DNA of 64,000 bases from an uncultured Bacteroidota bacterium. Lineage in GTDB: Bacteria; Bacteroidota; Bacteroidia; Flavobacteriales; BACL11. The notes under the pieces were generated by a model, which did not search any database, was not told the DNA's origin, and saw only the letters and a list, made by a program, of their open reading frames with translations. The DNA lies in the NCBI GenBank assembly GCA_902587125.1, contig CACIJW010000007.1, positions 1-64,000 of the forward strand, read 5' to 3'. Numbering within the stretch: position 1 is the first letter of the stretch; each line of letters begins with the position of its first letter. The translations under genes were made by a program, and so were the position numbers. Shown here piece by piece: positions 1 through 23,152 of this stretch.

Positions 1-2306
1 GAAATATTGGTATTAAAATCACTTTCAAAAATTGACTTTCTAAGATCGATCATATAATATGATAGTTCGTAATTGTTTCCATACTTAGTTGAATTAGTAA
101 TTCTTAATAAAACATTTCTATTAAGTAAGTGATCAAGTAGTCTTTTCTGATAAGTTAAAATTCTTTGATGAATCTCAGGATCAGCTGAAATACTAAACCC
201 TCTCCTTTGCTTTTGCAGATATGGAAAAATTTCTGGTTCTAATAAAATCTTGTTGCTGAATGCATAATCAGAAAGAATTTGCATAGCTTTTTTTTGTGTT
301 TTAATATCAACACTCTCAAAAGGTTTTTTTGTTGATTCTTGATTTGTATGTGATAAATCAACTTTAACACCTCCAATCTGTCTTGTAACTATATTTAGAG
401 CTTGGTAATATGAAAAGAGTAATGTACGATATGATCTGTACAATTCTTCATACGTGTCGTTGTCCTTAGTATATTTATCTTTTATTTCAGAAACAATTCT
501 ATTTACCATTTCTATTTTATCTAAAGAATGATTTAGTGGGTCTCTAGCAAGGTCATATATCATTGCATCTGGATCGGTTCCCTTTCCAGCGGATCTCATA
601 TCATACGCATCGTTAGCAAATGCTAGTTCTCTATTAGTAGATTTAGATAAAATCTTCTCAATTTCCTCATCCTCATTGTTTTGAAAAACTGAATATCCAA
701 ATTGAATTGCCCACCTGTCATAAACGCCAGGTTTAATATCAAAATATAAACCTTGATCATCTGGATTTTTAGCAATATTTATTGCAGGATATTCCATTAC
801 AGATGAACAAACACCCTTTTCATTTACTATTTCCTTGTTATTTAACTCCTCTGTTGTTAAAAGCAAACTTCCTTTAAAATTATGACTTAGTCCTAAAGTA
901 TGACCCACCTCATGAAGAACAAGTCTGTATAATGACTGTTTTACAAGTTCTTTCTCCATTTCCTCGGACAAACTCATAGACTTGATGTAGTTCATTCCTA
1001 AAGATGTTTCAATGTTTTGATAATGTGCTGCATTACAACATTGATCTGTTGAAGTTAAGTTCATAGGATTATTAAATAATTCATCAGATCTTATACGATT
1101 AGTTATATATGTCCATTCGAGCATTATATCTGCACCTAATATTTCTCCTGTTCTAGGATTTACAAAAGATGGTCCATAACCTCCCCAAGGTGGACTAGGA
1201 GATGAAGTCCATCTCAAAACATTATATCTAATGTCACCAGCATCCCAATCTGCAGTATCAGGTTGTATCTTTACTTGAATTGCATTAGTAAATCCAGCAT
1301 CCTCAAACGCAATATTCCATGATTCAACACCATTCTTAATAATTTGTCTGTACTCTACTGGTGTTGTGTTCTCGATCCACCAAACAATAGGTTTAATAGG
1401 ATCTGATAATTCTGCCTCAGGATTTATTTTTTCTAATCTCCATCTATTGATAAAGTCTCTATAATTTACTTGATCTATACTTGTCATGTGGTTTGTCTGA
1501 GTATTGAAAAAACCAACTCTTGTATCATCTTTTCTAGGCACATAGTTTGAATCTGGCAACTCAACGAGACTATGTTGAACTTTTATTGAAACACTTCTAG
1601 AGTCTGTCATTGCACTCCCACCTCTTGAAGAAGGATATTTATTTTCAAAAACATAATTAACTACTACATCAGTGTTTTCAGGGTAGCTTTTTATTTTATC
1701 ATACCTCGTTTTAGTTTTGCTAATCGAACCTAATCGATACCCTCTGTAAGTTTTTGGATATGAGTATTTCACTTGTTGAAATGATTCATTTAAAAACAAA
1801 TTATCAGCACTAATTAAAAACTTCGATTTACAATTTCCTGTTGCAATAATTTTCTCAGAAATAATAATTGGTGTATTAATATTAGTGTTTGAAGCCTTAC
1901 TTAGAGCACTATTTTTGTCAAAATAATACTTAGTATTCTCGATAACTATGTCTATTTTTTCATAAAACTTTGAGATTTTTATAATTTTTGAGCCACGATA
2001 TCTTCCTTTTACAACACCTGCATCCCCTACTCCATTTTCAAAATAACTGAAATAAATAAATTCTTTGTTTAAATGGTTACTATCAATTTCTAAAAATGCT
2101 TTTCCGTCTTTTTTACTTTGATAAATTTTGAATAGTCCATCAAATTCAATGCAGTTCTTTGTTTTTTCAATGATTTGATCTTTCTTTTCAGTAGGCTTTT
2201 TGGATTCAATTTTGGCCTTTTTCTTTTTGTTGTAAAATTCACTTTTGAACTGGGCATGTGAGTTAATAGAGGTTAATATAGCAATAGATAAAATTATTTG
2301 CTTCAT
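1..2306 (-). CDS. Zinc-dependent metalloprotease, metzincin-like (DUF5117/DUF4953 type), 3' end missing
   Basis: Partial gene: the reading frame is open from an ATG at 2306 to the window edge (768 codons), so the C-terminus is outside. The N-terminus is a signal peptide (MKQIILSIAILTSINSHAQ), so the product is exported. The zinc site HEVGHTLGLSH at residues about 465-475 fits the metzincin pattern HExxHxxGxxH, and it is followed by NFKGS, typical of the large Bacteroidota family annotated with DUF5118, DUF5117 and DUF4953. Substrate is unknown; cell-surface or periplasmic proteolysis is inferred. It lies 18 bases after the TPR gene and is probably the last visible gene of the gyrA run. Length fits the family (usually about 800 residues or more). 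Confidence 0.88.
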   Translation of the reverse strand, partial: MKQIILSIAILTSINSHAQFKSEFYNKKKKAKIESKKPTEKKDQIIEKTKNCIEFDGLFKIYQSKKDGKAFLEIDSNHLNKEFIYFSYFENGVGDAGVVKGRYRGSKIIKISKFYEKIDIVIENTKYYFDKNSALSKASNTNINTPIIISEKIIATGNCKSKFLISADNLFLNESFQQVKYSYPKTYRGYRLGSISKTKTRYDKIKSYPENTDVVVNYVFENKYPSSRGGSAMTDSRSVSIKVQHSLVELPDSNYVPRKDDTRVGFFNTQTNHMTSIDQVNYRDFINRWRLEKINPEAELSDPIKPIVWWIENTTPVEYRQIIKNGVESWNIAFEDAGFTNAIQVKIQPDTADWDAGDIRYNVLRWTSSPSPPWGGYGPSFVNPRTGEILGADIMLEWTYITNRIRSDELFNNPMNLTSTDQCCNAAHYQNIETSLGMNYIKSMSLSEEMEKELVKQSLYRLVLHEVGHTLGLSHNFKGSLLLTTEELNNKEIVNEKGVCSSVMEYPAINIAKNPDDQGLYFDIKPGVYDRWAIQFGYSVFQNNEDEEIEKILSKSTNRELAFANDAYDMRSAGKGTDPDAMIYDLARDPLNHSLDKIEMVNRIVSEIKDKYTKDNDTYEELYRSYRTLLFSYYQALNIVTRQIGGVKVDLSHTNQESTKKPFESVDIKTQKKAMQILSDYAFSNKILLEPEIFPYLQKQRRGFSISADPEIHQRILTYQKRLLDHLLNRNVLLRITNSTKYGNNYELSYYMIDLRKSIFESDFNTNI

Positions 2307-18403: not shown

Positions 18404-19300
18404 TCATACTAGCTTTTTAGAGATCTTTTTAATTCTTGTTAGTTCAGAAATCAGTTCATTGAAATCGTCATTTTTCAATGATGTAAGAGGTAGTCTTAAT
18501 ACATTTTTGCATATATTTAAGTGGTTTAAAGCTGATTTAATTCCACTAGGATTTCCATTTTTAAATAATGACTTAATAAAATAAGATAGCTCAAAAGAAA
18601 TTTTATCAGAAATAGAAAAATTTTTATTTAACGCCTCATGCACCATTTTAGAAAATAATTTTGGGAAACATTGCCCTACAACTGAAATAACTCCATCTCC
18701 ACCATTTTTAATTATTTGATTAGTTAAATCATCATCCCCTGAAACGACATTAAAATTTTTTGGCTTATTTTTTATTATTTCACTTATCTGTCTTAAATCT
18801 CCAGAAGCTTCCTTAATACCTATAATATTAGAAAATTTTGATGCTAGCTTTAAAGTTGTTGAAGCTTCTATATTTGAAGAAGTTCTTCCGGGAACATTGT
18901 ATAGTATAATAGGCACATTTGAACTTTCTGAAATTAATTTATAATGTAAAAAAATCCCTTCTTGAGACGGTTTGTTATAGTAAGGAGACACTGAAAGTAT
19001 TGCTGAAATATTCGAAAAGTTTGTTTTTTTTATTTTATCAACTATGGCCATTGTATTATTTCCACCAATACCTAAACATATTGGGACTCTTTTTTCGACT
19101 GTATTTATAGTATGTTCAATGACTGATGCCTTTTCTTGATTATTTAATACAACACTCTCACCAGTAGTTCCTAAACTAACTATATAATCAACACCACCGT
19201 CGATTACATGATTAATTAACTTAGTTAAAGCTCTAAAATCTACAGAAAAATCTTCTTTAAACGGAGTAATAATTGCAACCCCAAGGCCCTTTAAATTCAT
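18404..19300 (-). CDS. dapA: 4-hydroxy-tetrahydrodipicolinate synthase
   Basis: 298 residues, standard length. It condenses pyruvate with aspartate semialdehyde, the first committed step to diaminopimelate and lysine. The Schiff-base lysine is K163 in GIKEASGD, the catalytic tyrosine Y134 in LYNVPGRT, and the threonine pair is in GTTGES (45-46). It overlaps the stop of the DUF6913-like gene by one base. After it comes a 53-base gap containing the bamD promoter. Confidence 0.96.
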   Translation of the reverse strand: MNLKGLGVAIITPFKEDFSVDFRALTKLINHVIDGGVDYIVSLGTTGESVVLNNQEKASVIEHTINTVEKRVPICLGIGGNNTMAIVDKIKKTNFSNISAILSVSPYYNKPSQEGIFLHYKLISESSNVPIILYNVPGRTSSNIEASTTLKLASKFSNIIGIKEASGDLRQISEIIKNKPKNFNVVSGDDDLTNQIIKNGGDGVISVVGQCFPKLFSKMVHEALNKNFSISDKISFELSYFIKSLFKNGNPSGIKSALNHLNICKNVLRLPLTSLKNDDFNELISELTRIKKISKKLV

Positions 19301-19842
19301 TATTTGTTAATTAAATTAATGTAATGCTTAATTTCGTCCATTAGCTTTAGTATTGATTTCTCTTTTTTTAACTCAATCATCAAATCATAGATATCAAAAT
19401 TTTCTTCATACATTCCTATTTTAAATCTAGCAATTGATTTGGCAACTAAATACTTGATCGGTATGCAGCTACTGTCACAAAGATTGATTAAAATATCATA
19501 GTCTCTCTTGACAAAATTATCAATGATATAGTTTTGAGGTTTATAAAACCAGTTCAAATCTTTTTGATAAAAGAAATCATATTGCAACTTGGGAGTGTGA
19601 CAGTATGACAATTTCTTGTCATTAACATAACCAAGTGCTTTAACATCTTTTCTTAGTTCAAAAAAATATGAAACAAAAGGCTTTATTTTATTAATATTTT
19701 CTTCTGAAGTTGCATCATAAAGAATACCTATTGATTTAGCTTCATCAATATTACAAACGCTCTTTACTCTCTGATTTAATTTTAATTCTCTTAAGAACAG
19801 AAATTGATTTATTTTGAGTCTAAAATTTTGAATATAACTCAT
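19300..19842 (-). CDS. Conserved protein, DUF6913-like
   Basis: 180 residues, no signal peptide or membrane segment. The pattern GILYDATSEENINKI near residue 40 and NLCDSSCIPIKYLVAKS near residue 120 resembles the short Flavobacteriia proteins labelled DUF6913, which often lie between ligA and dapA as here. Function is unknown. It overlaps ligA by 4 bases and dapA by 1, so it is tightly coupled to both. The family name is from memory of the context and should be confirmed by profile search. Confidence 0.7.
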   Translation of the reverse strand: MSYIQNFRLKINQFLFLRELKLNQRVKSVCNIDEAKSIGILYDATSEENINKIKPFVSYFFELRKDVKALGYVNDKKLSYCHTPKLQYDFFYQKDLNWFYKPQNYIIDNFVKRDYDILINLCDSSCIPIKYLVAKSIARFKIGMYEENFDIYDLMIELKKEKSILKLMDEIKHYINLINK

Positions 19843-21836
19843 TTTTTAATCATATTTAAAAAATCATCAATACCGATTATTGGTATATTCAAAGACAATG
19901 CTTTTTCTTTTTTTGATGGCCCCATGCTATCTCCAGACAATACAAAAGATGTTTTTTTTGAAATAGATGATAGTGACTCCCCACCATTTTCTTTAATAAT
20001 ATGTTTTAAATCCTCTCTAGAATAATCAGTAAATACGCCACTTACTACTATTTTTTTTCCACTGAGCAAGCTAGAAACTTGAATATTTTTTGTTTCATTT
20101 ATTTCAAATTGAATCCCATGATATTTTAATTTATTTACAATTTCAATATTTCTAGGCTCTTTAAAAAAATCAAAAATAGATATCGCAGTCGTTTCTGCAA
20201 TTTCATCCATCTCAACCAAAGTTTCAATATCAGCACCAATCAAATTTTCAATATTTTTAAAACAATTAGCTAACTTCTTGGACATTGTTTGTCCAACATG
20301 TCTTATTCCTAATGAAAAGAGAACCTTGTCAAAAGTTATTTTTTTTGATTCATTAATACCGTTAATTATGTTTTCAGCCCATTTCCTACCCTCTTTTTTG
20401 AACGGCAACAACTGATCTATTTTTAAATCGTACAAATCTGAAATATTTGAAACTAAATTATTATCAAAAAATAAATCAATTGTTTTCTTGCCTATTGAAT
20501 CAATATTCATTGCATTTCTGCTTATATAATGTTCAATAGCTCCTTTTATTTGAGGTCCACAATTATATCTATTAAGACAATAATGTTTGGCATCTCCTAT
20601 TTTTCTTTGTAGGACAGAACCACATGCAGGACAATTTTTAATAAAATTAAATGTATTTGAAAATAAGTCATTTCTTGAGTCAATTACTCTAACAACTTTA
20701 GGAATAATCTCACCTCCTTTCTCAATAATAACGTTAGAACCTATTTGAACTCCTAACTTAATTATTTGATCGTAATTGTGAAGTGATGCTCTTTTAATGA
20801 TAGTGCCCGATAATTTAACTGGCTTTAAGTTTGCTACAGGAGTTATAGCTCCTGTTCTACCAACTTGATAATCAATATTGGTAACAATTGTATTTGCTTG
20901 TTCAGCCTGAAATTTGTAGGCAATTGCCCATCTTGGACTTTTAGCTGTATTACCTAATTCATTTTGAAGATTAATATTGTCAACCTTTACAACTACACCA
21001 TCAATTTCAAATGGCAAAGTATCTCTAACTTGATTTAAATCTTTAATGTATTTTATTACATCTTCAATTGAGCTAAATTTTTTGGAATAAGAAGAAGTAT
21101 TAAATCCCCATGACTTAGCATATTCAAGATTTTCTATATGGCTTTCACTTGGAAGATCATTTCCTAACAAAGAAAATAAGAAACAATCTAGAGGGCGTTC
21201 AGCAACCTCAGATACATCTAAAATTTTAATACTTCCTGATGCAGTATTCCTTGGATTGGAAAAAAGTTCCTTTCCTTCTTTTTCTCTTTTAAGATTTAAT
21301 TCTAAGAAAGAAGATTTTGAAATAAAAATTTCACCCCTAATCTCAAACAAATTTGGAAAATTTCCAAAAATCTTTCTTGGGATGCTTTTAATAGTTTTTA
21401 TGTTTTCAATGACATTATCTCCATTTATTCCATCTCCCCTTGTTAATGCTCTTATTAAAACTCCATTTTCATATTTTAGACTAATTGATACTCCATCAAA
21501 CTTAAGTTCACATACATACTCAATATTTTTGTCTGTTAACTTTTTAATTCTTTTTTCAAAGTCAAAAAGTTCTTCATTAGAATATGTATTAGACAATGAC
21601 AACATTGGATAATCATGATTCATTGATTCAAAAGAATTCATCAATTGTCCCCCAACATTTTGAGTGGGAGAATTAACATCAAATAGCTGAGGATATTTAG
21701 ACTCTAACTCAGTAAGCTCATCTATTAACTTATCATATTCAAAATCAGAAATAGCAGGTTTGTCAAGAACATAATATTTATGGTTATGTTCTTCAATTAA
21801 TTTTCTGAGGCTATTAATTTGTTCTCTTATATCCAA
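19839..21836 (-). CDS. ligA: NAD-dependent DNA ligase
   Basis: 665 residues, full length. It seals nicks in replication and repair using NAD+. The adenylated lysine is K112 in ELKFDG. The NTase domain is followed by an OB fold (GRTGAITPVANLKPV), a four-cysteine zinc finger (CPAC and CLNRYNC, near 405-430), helix-hairpin-helix repeats (FSLGIRHVGQTMSKKL), and a C-terminal BRCT domain (SLLSGKKIVVSGVF onward). It starts 2 bases after the preceding gene and overlaps the next by 4. Confidence 0.97.
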   Translation of the reverse strand: MDIREQINSLRKLIEEHNHKYYVLDKPAISDFEYDKLIDELTELESKYPQLFDVNSPTQNVGGQLMNSFESMNHDYPMLSLSNTYSNEELFDFEKRIKKLTDKNIEYVCELKFDGVSISLKYENGVLIRALTRGDGINGDNVIENIKTIKSIPRKIFGNFPNLFEIRGEIFISKSSFLELNLKREKEGKELFSNPRNTASGSIKILDVSEVAERPLDCFLFSLLGNDLPSESHIENLEYAKSWGFNTSSYSKKFSSIEDVIKYIKDLNQVRDTLPFEIDGVVVKVDNINLQNELGNTAKSPRWAIAYKFQAEQANTIVTNIDYQVGRTGAITPVANLKPVKLSGTIIKRASLHNYDQIIKLGVQIGSNVIIEKGGEIIPKVVRVIDSRNDLFSNTFNFIKNCPACGSVLQRKIGDAKHYCLNRYNCGPQIKGAIEHYISRNAMNIDSIGKKTIDLFFDNNLVSNISDLYDLKIDQLLPFKKEGRKWAENIINGINESKKITFDKVLFSLGIRHVGQTMSKKLANCFKNIENLIGADIETLVEMDEIAETTAISIFDFFKEPRNIEIVNKLKYHGIQFEINETKNIQVSSLLSGKKIVVSGVFTDYSREDLKHIIKENGGESLSSISKKTSFVLSGDSMGPSKKEKALSLNIPIIGIDDFLNMIKK

Positions 21837-21838
21837 TT

Positions 21839-22294
21839 TTAATAATTGTATGGTAGATGAGAGTCATGAAGAACAATCTTTAATTTTTTTTCATCATCAA
21901 GAATATAAACAAAAGAAAATTCAACCTTTAACTCTTGACCACTAGAATCTTTGAAATAATAGTTTCCCATTGCATAAGCCATATTGTTTATTATTCTAAT
22001 TCCTTTGTTTTCCCATCGAACATTGTTCCAACATTTTAATGCAAAGCCTTTGTCCTCAGAATAAAGTTCATTATTGCCGATAAAATAAGAAAGAGCTGAT
22101 TCAAAATTAGTTCTAAATTGAGTTTCGCTTGCCAATGTTGGTTTGAATAGTAAAGGCTTAGTAAAATCATAAAAATTTTTCACGAATTCTTTGGCAGTTT
22201 TAGCATAGTCTTTTTTGCTTGAAAAGTCTTCACCAATTTTAATAACTCCCTTACCCCACTGTTCTTGAAAGCTAATTATGTCTTTTTCTGTCAT
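21839..22294 (-). CDS. Iota-class carbonic anhydrase-like protein (COG4337 / CaMKII association-domain fold)
   Basis: 151 residues, no signal peptide, so probably cytoplasmic. The blocks WGKGVIKIG (13-21), LLFKPTLAS (48-56), FRTNFESALSYFIG (60-73), GFALKCWNNVRWEN (83-96), AYAMGNYYF (106-114) and HDSHLPY (143-149) match what I recall of the bacterial and algal family that includes iota carbonic anhydrases, which reversibly hydrate CO2. That family normally ends with HHSSLP; here it is HDSHLP, keeping the first His and the first Ser. Activity is therefore inferred, and a non-catalytic NTF2-like relative is possible. It lies between prmC (24-base gap) and ligA (2 bases). Confidence 0.68.
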   Translation of the reverse strand: MTEKDIISFQEQWGKGVIKIGEDFSSKKDYAKTAKEFVKNFYDFTKPLLFKPTLASETQFRTNFESALSYFIGNNELYSEDKGFALKCWNNVRWENKGIRIINNMAYAMGNYYFKDSSGQELKVEFSFVYILDDEKKLKIVLHDSHLPYNY

Positions 22295-22318: not shown

Positions 22319-23152
22319 CTAATTCAGTACTGCTTTAAGCATTCTATTTCTATTGTTTAAATCTTTTTTTAACTCAATATTAACAAATTTATTTTTTTTT
22401 AAAACCTCTATTGTTTCCTCACAAAAATTGGGATTAATTTCCAAAAACAACATACCTCCTTTTTTTAAATTATTTAGTGAAAAAAATGATATTGTTTTGT
22501 AAAAAAAAGTTGGATCATCATTTTCGACGAAAATTGCTGATTTAGGCTCATTCAATAAAACATTATTATGCATGTAAATTGATTCATCTTTAGTTACATA
22601 TGGCGGATTACTTACAATTAAATCAAATTTTTTATTGGGTTCGTAACTATTAATATCAGCCACAAAAAAATCAATATGAACTTCATTCTTTATGGCATTA
22701 TTTTTTGCAATTTCAATTGCTGAGGCACTTATATCAATAGCTGTAAATGAAGTTTTTTTATACTTTGATATTGCTATTGGTATACAACCACTACCAGTAC
22801 CAATATCTAAAGCTAGATTAAAATCATGTTTTTTAATCCATTCAACTAACTCTTCAGTCTCTTGCCTCGGAATCAAAACATTCTTATCAACATAAAAAGT
22901 TAAACCATTAAATACACACTTGTTTAATATATATTCGATTGGAACATTTTTTTTTAGTTTTTTTACGATTTCTACAATTAATAAGTAATCTTTTTCTGCT
23001 AATGTTTTTTGTTTGTTGATTATAAATTCAGCATAGTTTAATTTCAGAACTTCTTTAACTATTATTCGCAAAAGAGAATCAATTTCTCTTGAATTATAAA
23101 TTTCTAATAATTCATCAAAAAAATAATCTGAAATTTGACCAATCAATAACAC
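22319..23152 (-). CDS. prmC: Peptide chain release factor N5-glutamine methyltransferase
   Basis: 277 residues. It methylates the GGQ glutamine of release factors RF1 and RF2. SAM motif I DIGTGSGCI is at 116-124 and the amide-methyltransferase motif NPPY at 182-185; the N-terminal helical domain includes VPIEYILN. The start is a GTG at 23152. No closer ATG exists, and a TAnnTTTG box ends 4 bases upstream, which supports this start. First gene of the twelve-gene minus-strand run; divergent from ribD with a 33-base gap. Confidence 0.93.
   Translation of the reverse strand: MLLIGQISDYFFDELLEIYNSREIDSLLRIIVKEVLKLNYAEFIINKQKTLAEKDYLLIVEIVKKLKKNVPIEYILNKCVFNGLTFYVDKNVLIPRQETEELVEWIKKHDFNLALDIGTGSGCIPIAISKYKKTSFTAIDISASAIEIAKNNAIKNEVHIDFFVADINSYEPNKKFDLIVSNPPYVTKDESIYMHNNVLLNEPKSAIFVENDDPTFFYKTISFFSLNNLKKGGMLFLEINPNFCEETIEVLKKNKFVNIELKKDLNNRNRMLKAVLN

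What the first reader, a model, noticed from the sequence alone, without database searches (positions are those of the whole stretch)
21839..22294. Iota-class carbonic anhydrase homologue with an altered signature, inside a housekeeping run
Several blocks match the iota carbonic anhydrase family (COG4337), but the usual HHSSLP reads HDSHLP. Some iota enzymes act without a metal, with Ser, Thr and Tyr residues important, so the retained Ser145 may keep activity, or this may be a sub-type with other chemistry. It has no signal peptide, unlike several bacterial members. A cytoplasmic CO2/bicarbonate enzyme beside ligA and prmC would be new to me.
Basis: partly seen in the sequence, partly recalled or inferred. 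Interest (0 to 1): 0.62.

Follow-up and report, generated by a model that had tools for sequence, protein, structure and literature searches.

The report
Cytoplasmic metal-free carbonic anhydrase in marine flavobacteria
The gene encodes an intracellular relative of the metal-free iota (COG4337) carbonic anhydrases that keeps every residue shown to matter for catalysis, and across its marine flavobacterial family it appears to stand in for the usual zinc beta-carbonic anhydrase, which these genomes lack.

Summary
The 151-aa gene at 21839-22294 (-) is a real, conserved COG4337-type iota carbonic anhydrase homologue. The AlphaFold model (pLDDT 95.7) superposes on cyanobacterial 7c5v at 1.0 A over all 151 residues (Z 25.6; the best other NTF2-like fold scores Z 16). 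The altered signature is less alarming than feared. The residues that lose activity when mutated in all2909 (Thr106, Tyr124, His197, Ser199) map to Thr53, Tyr70, His143 and Ser145, all kept and invariant in 39 homologues. HDSH alters only the second His and second Ser, which also vary elsewhere (HHSA, HKSA, HQSS). HDSH[LF]P marks one GTDB family (34 of 35 copies); there the gene has no signal peptide and sits beside ligA wherever checked. Beta-CA is found in 1 of 52 genomes of that family, alpha-CA in 1 of 52. Across 296 genomes of the order, leaderless iota rarely co-occurs with beta-CA (2 of 25, versus 186 of 266 without iota). Where iota is missing, the slot holds a PCC-domain gene (5 genomes) or a deletion scar (2, one with a beta-CA). 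Best reading: the housekeeping cytoplasmic CO2 hydratase, metal-free. Caveats: PaaY-type gamma homologues are present; no assay was possible.

The parts
21839..22294 (-). COG4337-type iota carbonic anhydrase homologue, 151 aa, no signal peptide
22136..22138 (-). codon of Thr53 (= Thr106 of all2909, essential there)
   Evidence: alignment to 7c5v, mutations in PMC8132391, invariant in 39 of 39
22085..22087 (-). codon of Tyr70 (= Tyr124, essential, proposed proton shuttle)
22043..22045 (-). codon of Phe84 (= Phe138, proposed hydrophobic CO2 pocket)
21851..21868 (-). HDSHLP motif: His143 (= His197) and Ser145 (= Ser199) kept; Asp144 and His146 replace the second His and second Ser
22319..23152 (-). 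prmC, upstream neighbour, 24-bp gap
   Evidence: TIGR03534 213 bits over cut-off 199; synteny
19839..21836 (-). ligA, downstream neighbour, 2-bp gap
   Evidence: NF005932 771 bits; synteny
19300..19842 (-). DUF6913 protein, next gene of the same run
   Evidence: PF21857 E=4e-35
18404..19300 (-). dapA, last gene of the overlapping run examined
   Evidence: TIGR00674 298 bits
23186..24211 (+). ribD, divergent; bounds the run
   Evidence: TIGR00326 297 bits

Best explanation
It is a cytoplasmic, metal-independent CO2 hydratase of the COG4337 branch of iota carbonic anhydrases. By analogy with all2909, an active-site water is deprotonated by the hydroxyls of Thr53 and Tyr70, helped by Ser145 and with His143 in the pocket, while CO2 sits by Phe84; Tyr70 passes the proton towards the surface. 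No metal is needed. In this flavobacterial family it takes the housekeeping role that zinc beta-CA has in most of the order: supplying bicarbonate to enzymes such as biotin carboxylase and carbamoyl-phosphate synthase. The HDSH motif is a lineage signature outside the set of residues tested by mutation. Shown here: homology, predicted fold, retention of the four residues, no leader, fixed synteny, absence of alpha and beta CA. Inferred: activity, metal independence and physiological role.
For: Family match NF047901 E=4.6e-29; all 39 aligned homologues match that family. PDB sequence matches 7c5v and 7c5x. AF2 model pLDDT 95.7; VIA Z 25.6, rmsd 1.0 A over 151 residues to 7c5v, best fold outside the COG4337 entries Z 16.0; Foldseek TM 0.97. 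Residue mapping from mutagenesis in PMC8132391 onto T53, Y70, H143, S145, invariant in 39 of 39. No leader. Alpha and beta CA absent from this genome and each from 51 of 52 family genomes. Order-wide: leaderless iota with beta-CA in 2 of 25 genomes, iota-negative genomes 186 of 266, leader-bearing iota 5 of 5 (Fisher p=1e-9 over all, 6e-4 outside this family, not corrected for phylogeny). ligA adjacent in 33 of 33. In G072, which carries the family's only beta-CA, iota is reduced to about its first 15 codons. AccC and CarB motifs found in relative G013.
Against: No assay. The score is below the NF047901 curated cut-off. A PaaY-type gamma-CA homologue (P0002; best PDB hit 8gpm 'Carbonic anhydrase' E=3e-52; TIGR02287 235 bits, below cut-off 319.6) is in this genome and in most of the family, and many family members have a second gamma-like protein, so it is not the only candidate. 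Some genomes have neither iota nor alpha nor beta CA, so the role is not universally required or is met otherwise. Two genomes outside the family (G105, G201) have both leaderless iota and beta. Bicarbonate transporters were not surveyed.
Confidence: 0.78

Rival explanations
1. A COG4337 fold that has lost or changed carbonic anhydrase chemistry in this lineage: Asp144 and His146 form a new site and the protein binds or converts another small molecule.
For: Positions 144 and 146 switched together with position 129 in the clade and are then fixed (28 of 28 aligned); NTF2-like folds host many chemistries.
Against: Thr53, Tyr70, Phe84, His143 and Ser145 are invariant; second and fourth motif positions are free to vary in other lineages (HHSA, HKSA, HQSS, HNSA, HSST); beta-CA absence pattern.
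Confidence: 0.1
2. The gene is a carbonic anhydrase but a minor one; the housekeeping CA is the PaaY-type gamma homologue, and the loss of beta-CA is unrelated to iota.
For: P0002 relatives present in 44 of 52 family genomes, 14 of 15 good ones, with gamma-CA relatives in PDB.
Against: The PaaY-type gene lies beside a 3-oxoadipyl-CoA thiolase, pointing to phenylacetate-type metabolism; it is present also in a beta-bearing (G072) and an alpha-bearing (G065) relative, so it does not track CA loss.
Confidence: 0.12

Closest known systems
all2909 of Anabaena PCC7120 (COG4337, PDB 7c5v), metal-free iota carbonic anhydrase
   Same: Whole-length predicted fold (1.0 A, 36% identity) and all four residues whose mutation abolishes activity
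   Different: HDSH instead of HHSS; no signal peptide; run with prmC and ligA
Bn86287 of Bigelowiella natans (PDB 7c5x), three COG4337 domains, plastid
   Same: Domain fold (1.1 A, 40% identity) and active-site set
   Different: Single domain, bacterial, cytoplasmic, changed motif
COG4875-type iota-CA (T. pseudonana LCIP63, B. territorii)
   Same: Related C-terminal His-x-Ser motif and NTF2-like fold (their relative 3h51, Z 16)
   Different: Only 19% identity to 3h51; reported as metal-dependent; secreted or organellar

Membership tests
COG4337 metal-independent iota-CA | Sequence family match over the whole domain | tested here: met
   NF047901 E=4.6e-29, residues 2-150; 7c5v and 7c5x. Below the equivalog cut-off of 350 bits.
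COG4337 metal-independent iota-CA | Cone-shaped alpha+beta barrel fold of 7c5v | tested here: met
   AF2 model Z 25.6, 1.0 A over 151 residues
COG4337 metal-independent iota-CA | Active-site Thr, Tyr, His, Ser (106, 124, 197, 199 in all2909) | tested here: met
   T53, Y70, H143, S145
COG4337 metal-independent iota-CA | C-terminal motif: the His-x-Ser core that lines the pocket (literal His-His-Ser-Ser is a shared motif noted in PMC8132391, not a requirement shown by mutation) | tested here: met
   Core His143-x-Ser145 kept. The literal HHSS is not met (HDSH), but clear homologues read HHSA, HKSA, HQSS, HNSA and HSST, so positions 2 and 4 do not define the family.
COG4337 metal-independent iota-CA | CO2 hydration activity without metal | not testable with these tools
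   needs purified protein
Exported bacterial COG4337 members | N-terminal signal peptide (most bacterial members according to PMC8132391, not all) | tested here: not met
   no leader, upstream in-frame stop; leaderless members also in other families of the order and in Alphaproteobacteria
COG4875-type iota-CA | Closer to COG4875-like 3h51 than to COG4337 structures | tested here: not met
   3h51 Z 16.0, 19% identity, versus 7c5v Z 25.6, 36%

The most novel reading that the evidence does not exclude
The slot between prmC and ligA is a carbonic anhydrase slot: in at least two independent events the iota gene was exchanged there for a PCC-domain (PF03479) gene carrying an HxH...GGH histidine set. 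That PCC-domain protein would then be an unrecognised metal-dependent carbonic anhydrase, or another part of bicarbonate supply, interchangeable with the metal-free enzyme.
Probability: 0.1. Interest if true: 0.85.

Novelty: new variant of a known kind. Interest (0 to 1): 0.52.

Why it matters
Metal-free carbonic anhydrases were described as mostly exported enzymes in bacteria with an unclear role. Here is a streamlined marine lineage in which one sits in the cytoplasm, inside a housekeeping gene run, with the zinc alpha and beta enzymes gone. If active, it is natural evidence that a metal-free CA can carry the intracellular housekeeping role, which fits the idea in PMC8132391 that such enzymes suit metal-poor open ocean. 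It also shows that the HHSS signature should be relaxed to H-x-S when genomes are scanned for this class.

Tried and rejected
Pfam gave no hit. The PDB hits to SAKe designer proteins are short repeat matches and were ignored. Chance or pseudogene: rejected, since the frame is intact in relatives and all catalytic residues are invariant; pairwise dN/dS within the genus is about 0.4-0.6 on few changes, so weak by itself. A better match to another NTF2-like family: not found. Literature on bacterial PCC domain and zinc gave nothing useful. Promoter scan uninformative, fewer hits than shuffles. Beta-CA in genomes of the non-flavobacterial homologues: none in the two alphaproteobacterial genomes with leaderless iota, but these are partial assemblies of about 1.1-1.3 Mb.

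Full report
Observation. The ORF at 21839-22294 on the minus strand is real and reads as stated, with HDSHLP at residues 143-148. It has one copy in its genome. It lies in a tight same-strand run prmC - this gene - ligA - DUF6913 - dapA, with ribD divergent at the head. The gaps are 24 bp to prmC and 2 bp to ligA.

Family. Pfam has no model for it. NCBIfam's metal-independent carbonic anhydrase model matches from residue 2 to 150 at E=4.6e-29, though below the model's strict cut-off. The COG4337 crystal structures 7c5v and 7c5x are the best PDB sequences. An AlphaFold2 model from a 39-sequence alignment has mean pLDDT 95.7 and superposes on 7c5v over all 151 residues at 1.0 A, Z 25.6. The Xanthomonas COG4875-like protein 3h51 follows at Z 16.0 and other NTF2-like folds below 15.

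Active site. In all2909, alanine in place of Thr106, Tyr124, His197 or Ser199 abolished activity, and Lys180 was dispensable (PMC8132391). The phmmer alignment, with the chain numbering offset of 27 fixed by Thr106, Tyr124 and Phe138, places these at Thr53, Tyr70, His143 and Ser145; the VIA residue range 51..205 agrees. His197 and Ser199 are therefore the first His and first Ser of HHSS. HDSH changes only the second His and second Ser. In 39 homologues Thr53, Tyr70, Phe84, His143 and Ser145 are invariant, while positions 144 and 146 vary. Elsewhere the motif reads HHSA, HKSA, HQSS, HNSA or HSST. Position 129 (Gly to Val/Ala) on the neighbouring strand changes with 144 and 146, so the clade has a linked hairpin variant. 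What Asp144 and His146 do is not known; model coordinates could not be inspected.

Distribution. In the window's GTDB family, 35 of 52 genomes have the gene, 12 of 15 among good genomes, all 15 genera. 34 of the 35 copies read HDSH[LF]P; the exception, G011, reads HHSSIP and is not in the ligA locus, so it is probably a separate acquisition. All lack a leader. ligA is next door in 33 of 33 checked, and prmC in the 32 where the contig reaches; in G012 and G013 one extra gene separates prmC from it.

Other carbonic anhydrases. Beta-CA (PF00484) occurs in 1 of 52 family genomes, G072, which lacks iota. Alpha-CA (PF00194) occurs in 1 of 52, G065, which also lacks iota. In 296 genomes of the order, all at 90% completeness or more, 30 have iota, 193 beta and 20 alpha. 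Reading the N termini: of the 25 genomes with leaderless iota, 2 have beta (G105, G201); of the 5 with leader-bearing iota, 5 have beta; of 266 iota-negative genomes, 186 have beta. Fisher p is 1e-9 overall and 6e-4 without the window's family; these are not corrected for relatedness. Exclusion also holds inside genera: in g55 three genomes have iota and six others beta, in g58 two and four, with no overlap. Within family f8 the six leaderless-iota genomes all lack beta (p about 6e-4 on an upper estimate of 55 genomes in that family).

Gamma class. The genome has a PaaY-type gamma homologue beside a 3-oxoadipyl-CoA thiolase gene. Most of the family has it, and many have a second gamma-like protein that was not found in the window's genus. 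So 'only CA' cannot be claimed; 'only alpha-, beta- or iota-class CA found' can.

What happens when iota is lost. Of the iota-negative genomes where the prmC-ligA junction could be read, five (G023, G030, G032, G065, G071) have a 143-aa PCC-domain gene (PF03479 E=6e-28) exactly in the slot, and two sister genomes (G035, G072) have a deletion scar with about the first 15 codons of iota. None of the iota loci carries PCC. On the ligA tree PCC needs three changes, two forced by well-supported branches; G032 (PCC) is the close sister of G060 (iota). PCC proteins are 84-90% identical between G032 and the others, where ligA is 65-71% and prmC 48-53%, so the gene was probably transferred into the slot. 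The iota-bearing two-contig relative G013 has no PCC gene. Whether this is functional replacement or just a shared insertion site is open.

Conclusion. A new variant of a known kind: a leaderless COG4337 iota-CA in a housekeeping gene run, with a lineage-specific HDSH motif and an intact catalytic set, most likely the housekeeping cytoplasmic CO2 hydratase of a marine flavobacterial family without alpha or beta CA. Activity and metal independence remain to be measured.

Noticed in passing
L093:1804-2232, L094:1803-2231, L095:1803-2231, L097:1058-1486, L098:1061-1489: PCC-domain (PF03479) gene with an HxH...GGH histidine set occupies the prmC-ligA slot in five iota-lacking relatives; at least two independent swaps on the ligA tree.
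   Followed up: partly
L096:1100-1240 and L099:1371-1520: Scar of the iota gene (about the first 15 codons, then an internal deletion) between prmC and ligA in G035 and G072; G072 carries the family's only beta-CA.
   Followed up: partly
L053:1243-1836 (G000 contig C24): PaaY/gamma-CA-type hexapeptide protein directly after a 3-oxoadipyl-CoA thiolase gene in the window's own genome.
   Followed up: partly
L075 and L082 (G122): Two tandem leader-bearing iota-CA genes with HSSTLP and HNSALP motifs, in a genome that also has beta-CA.
   Followed up: no
L029 and L031 (G012, G013): Two genomes placed in different genera (g9, g10) share near-identical ligA and iota loci with an extra 381-codon open frame between prmC and iota; transfer or misplacement of one genome.
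   Followed up: no
window 19300-19842 (-): DUF6913 protein overlapping ligA and dapA by a few bases in the same run; function unknown.
   Followed up: no
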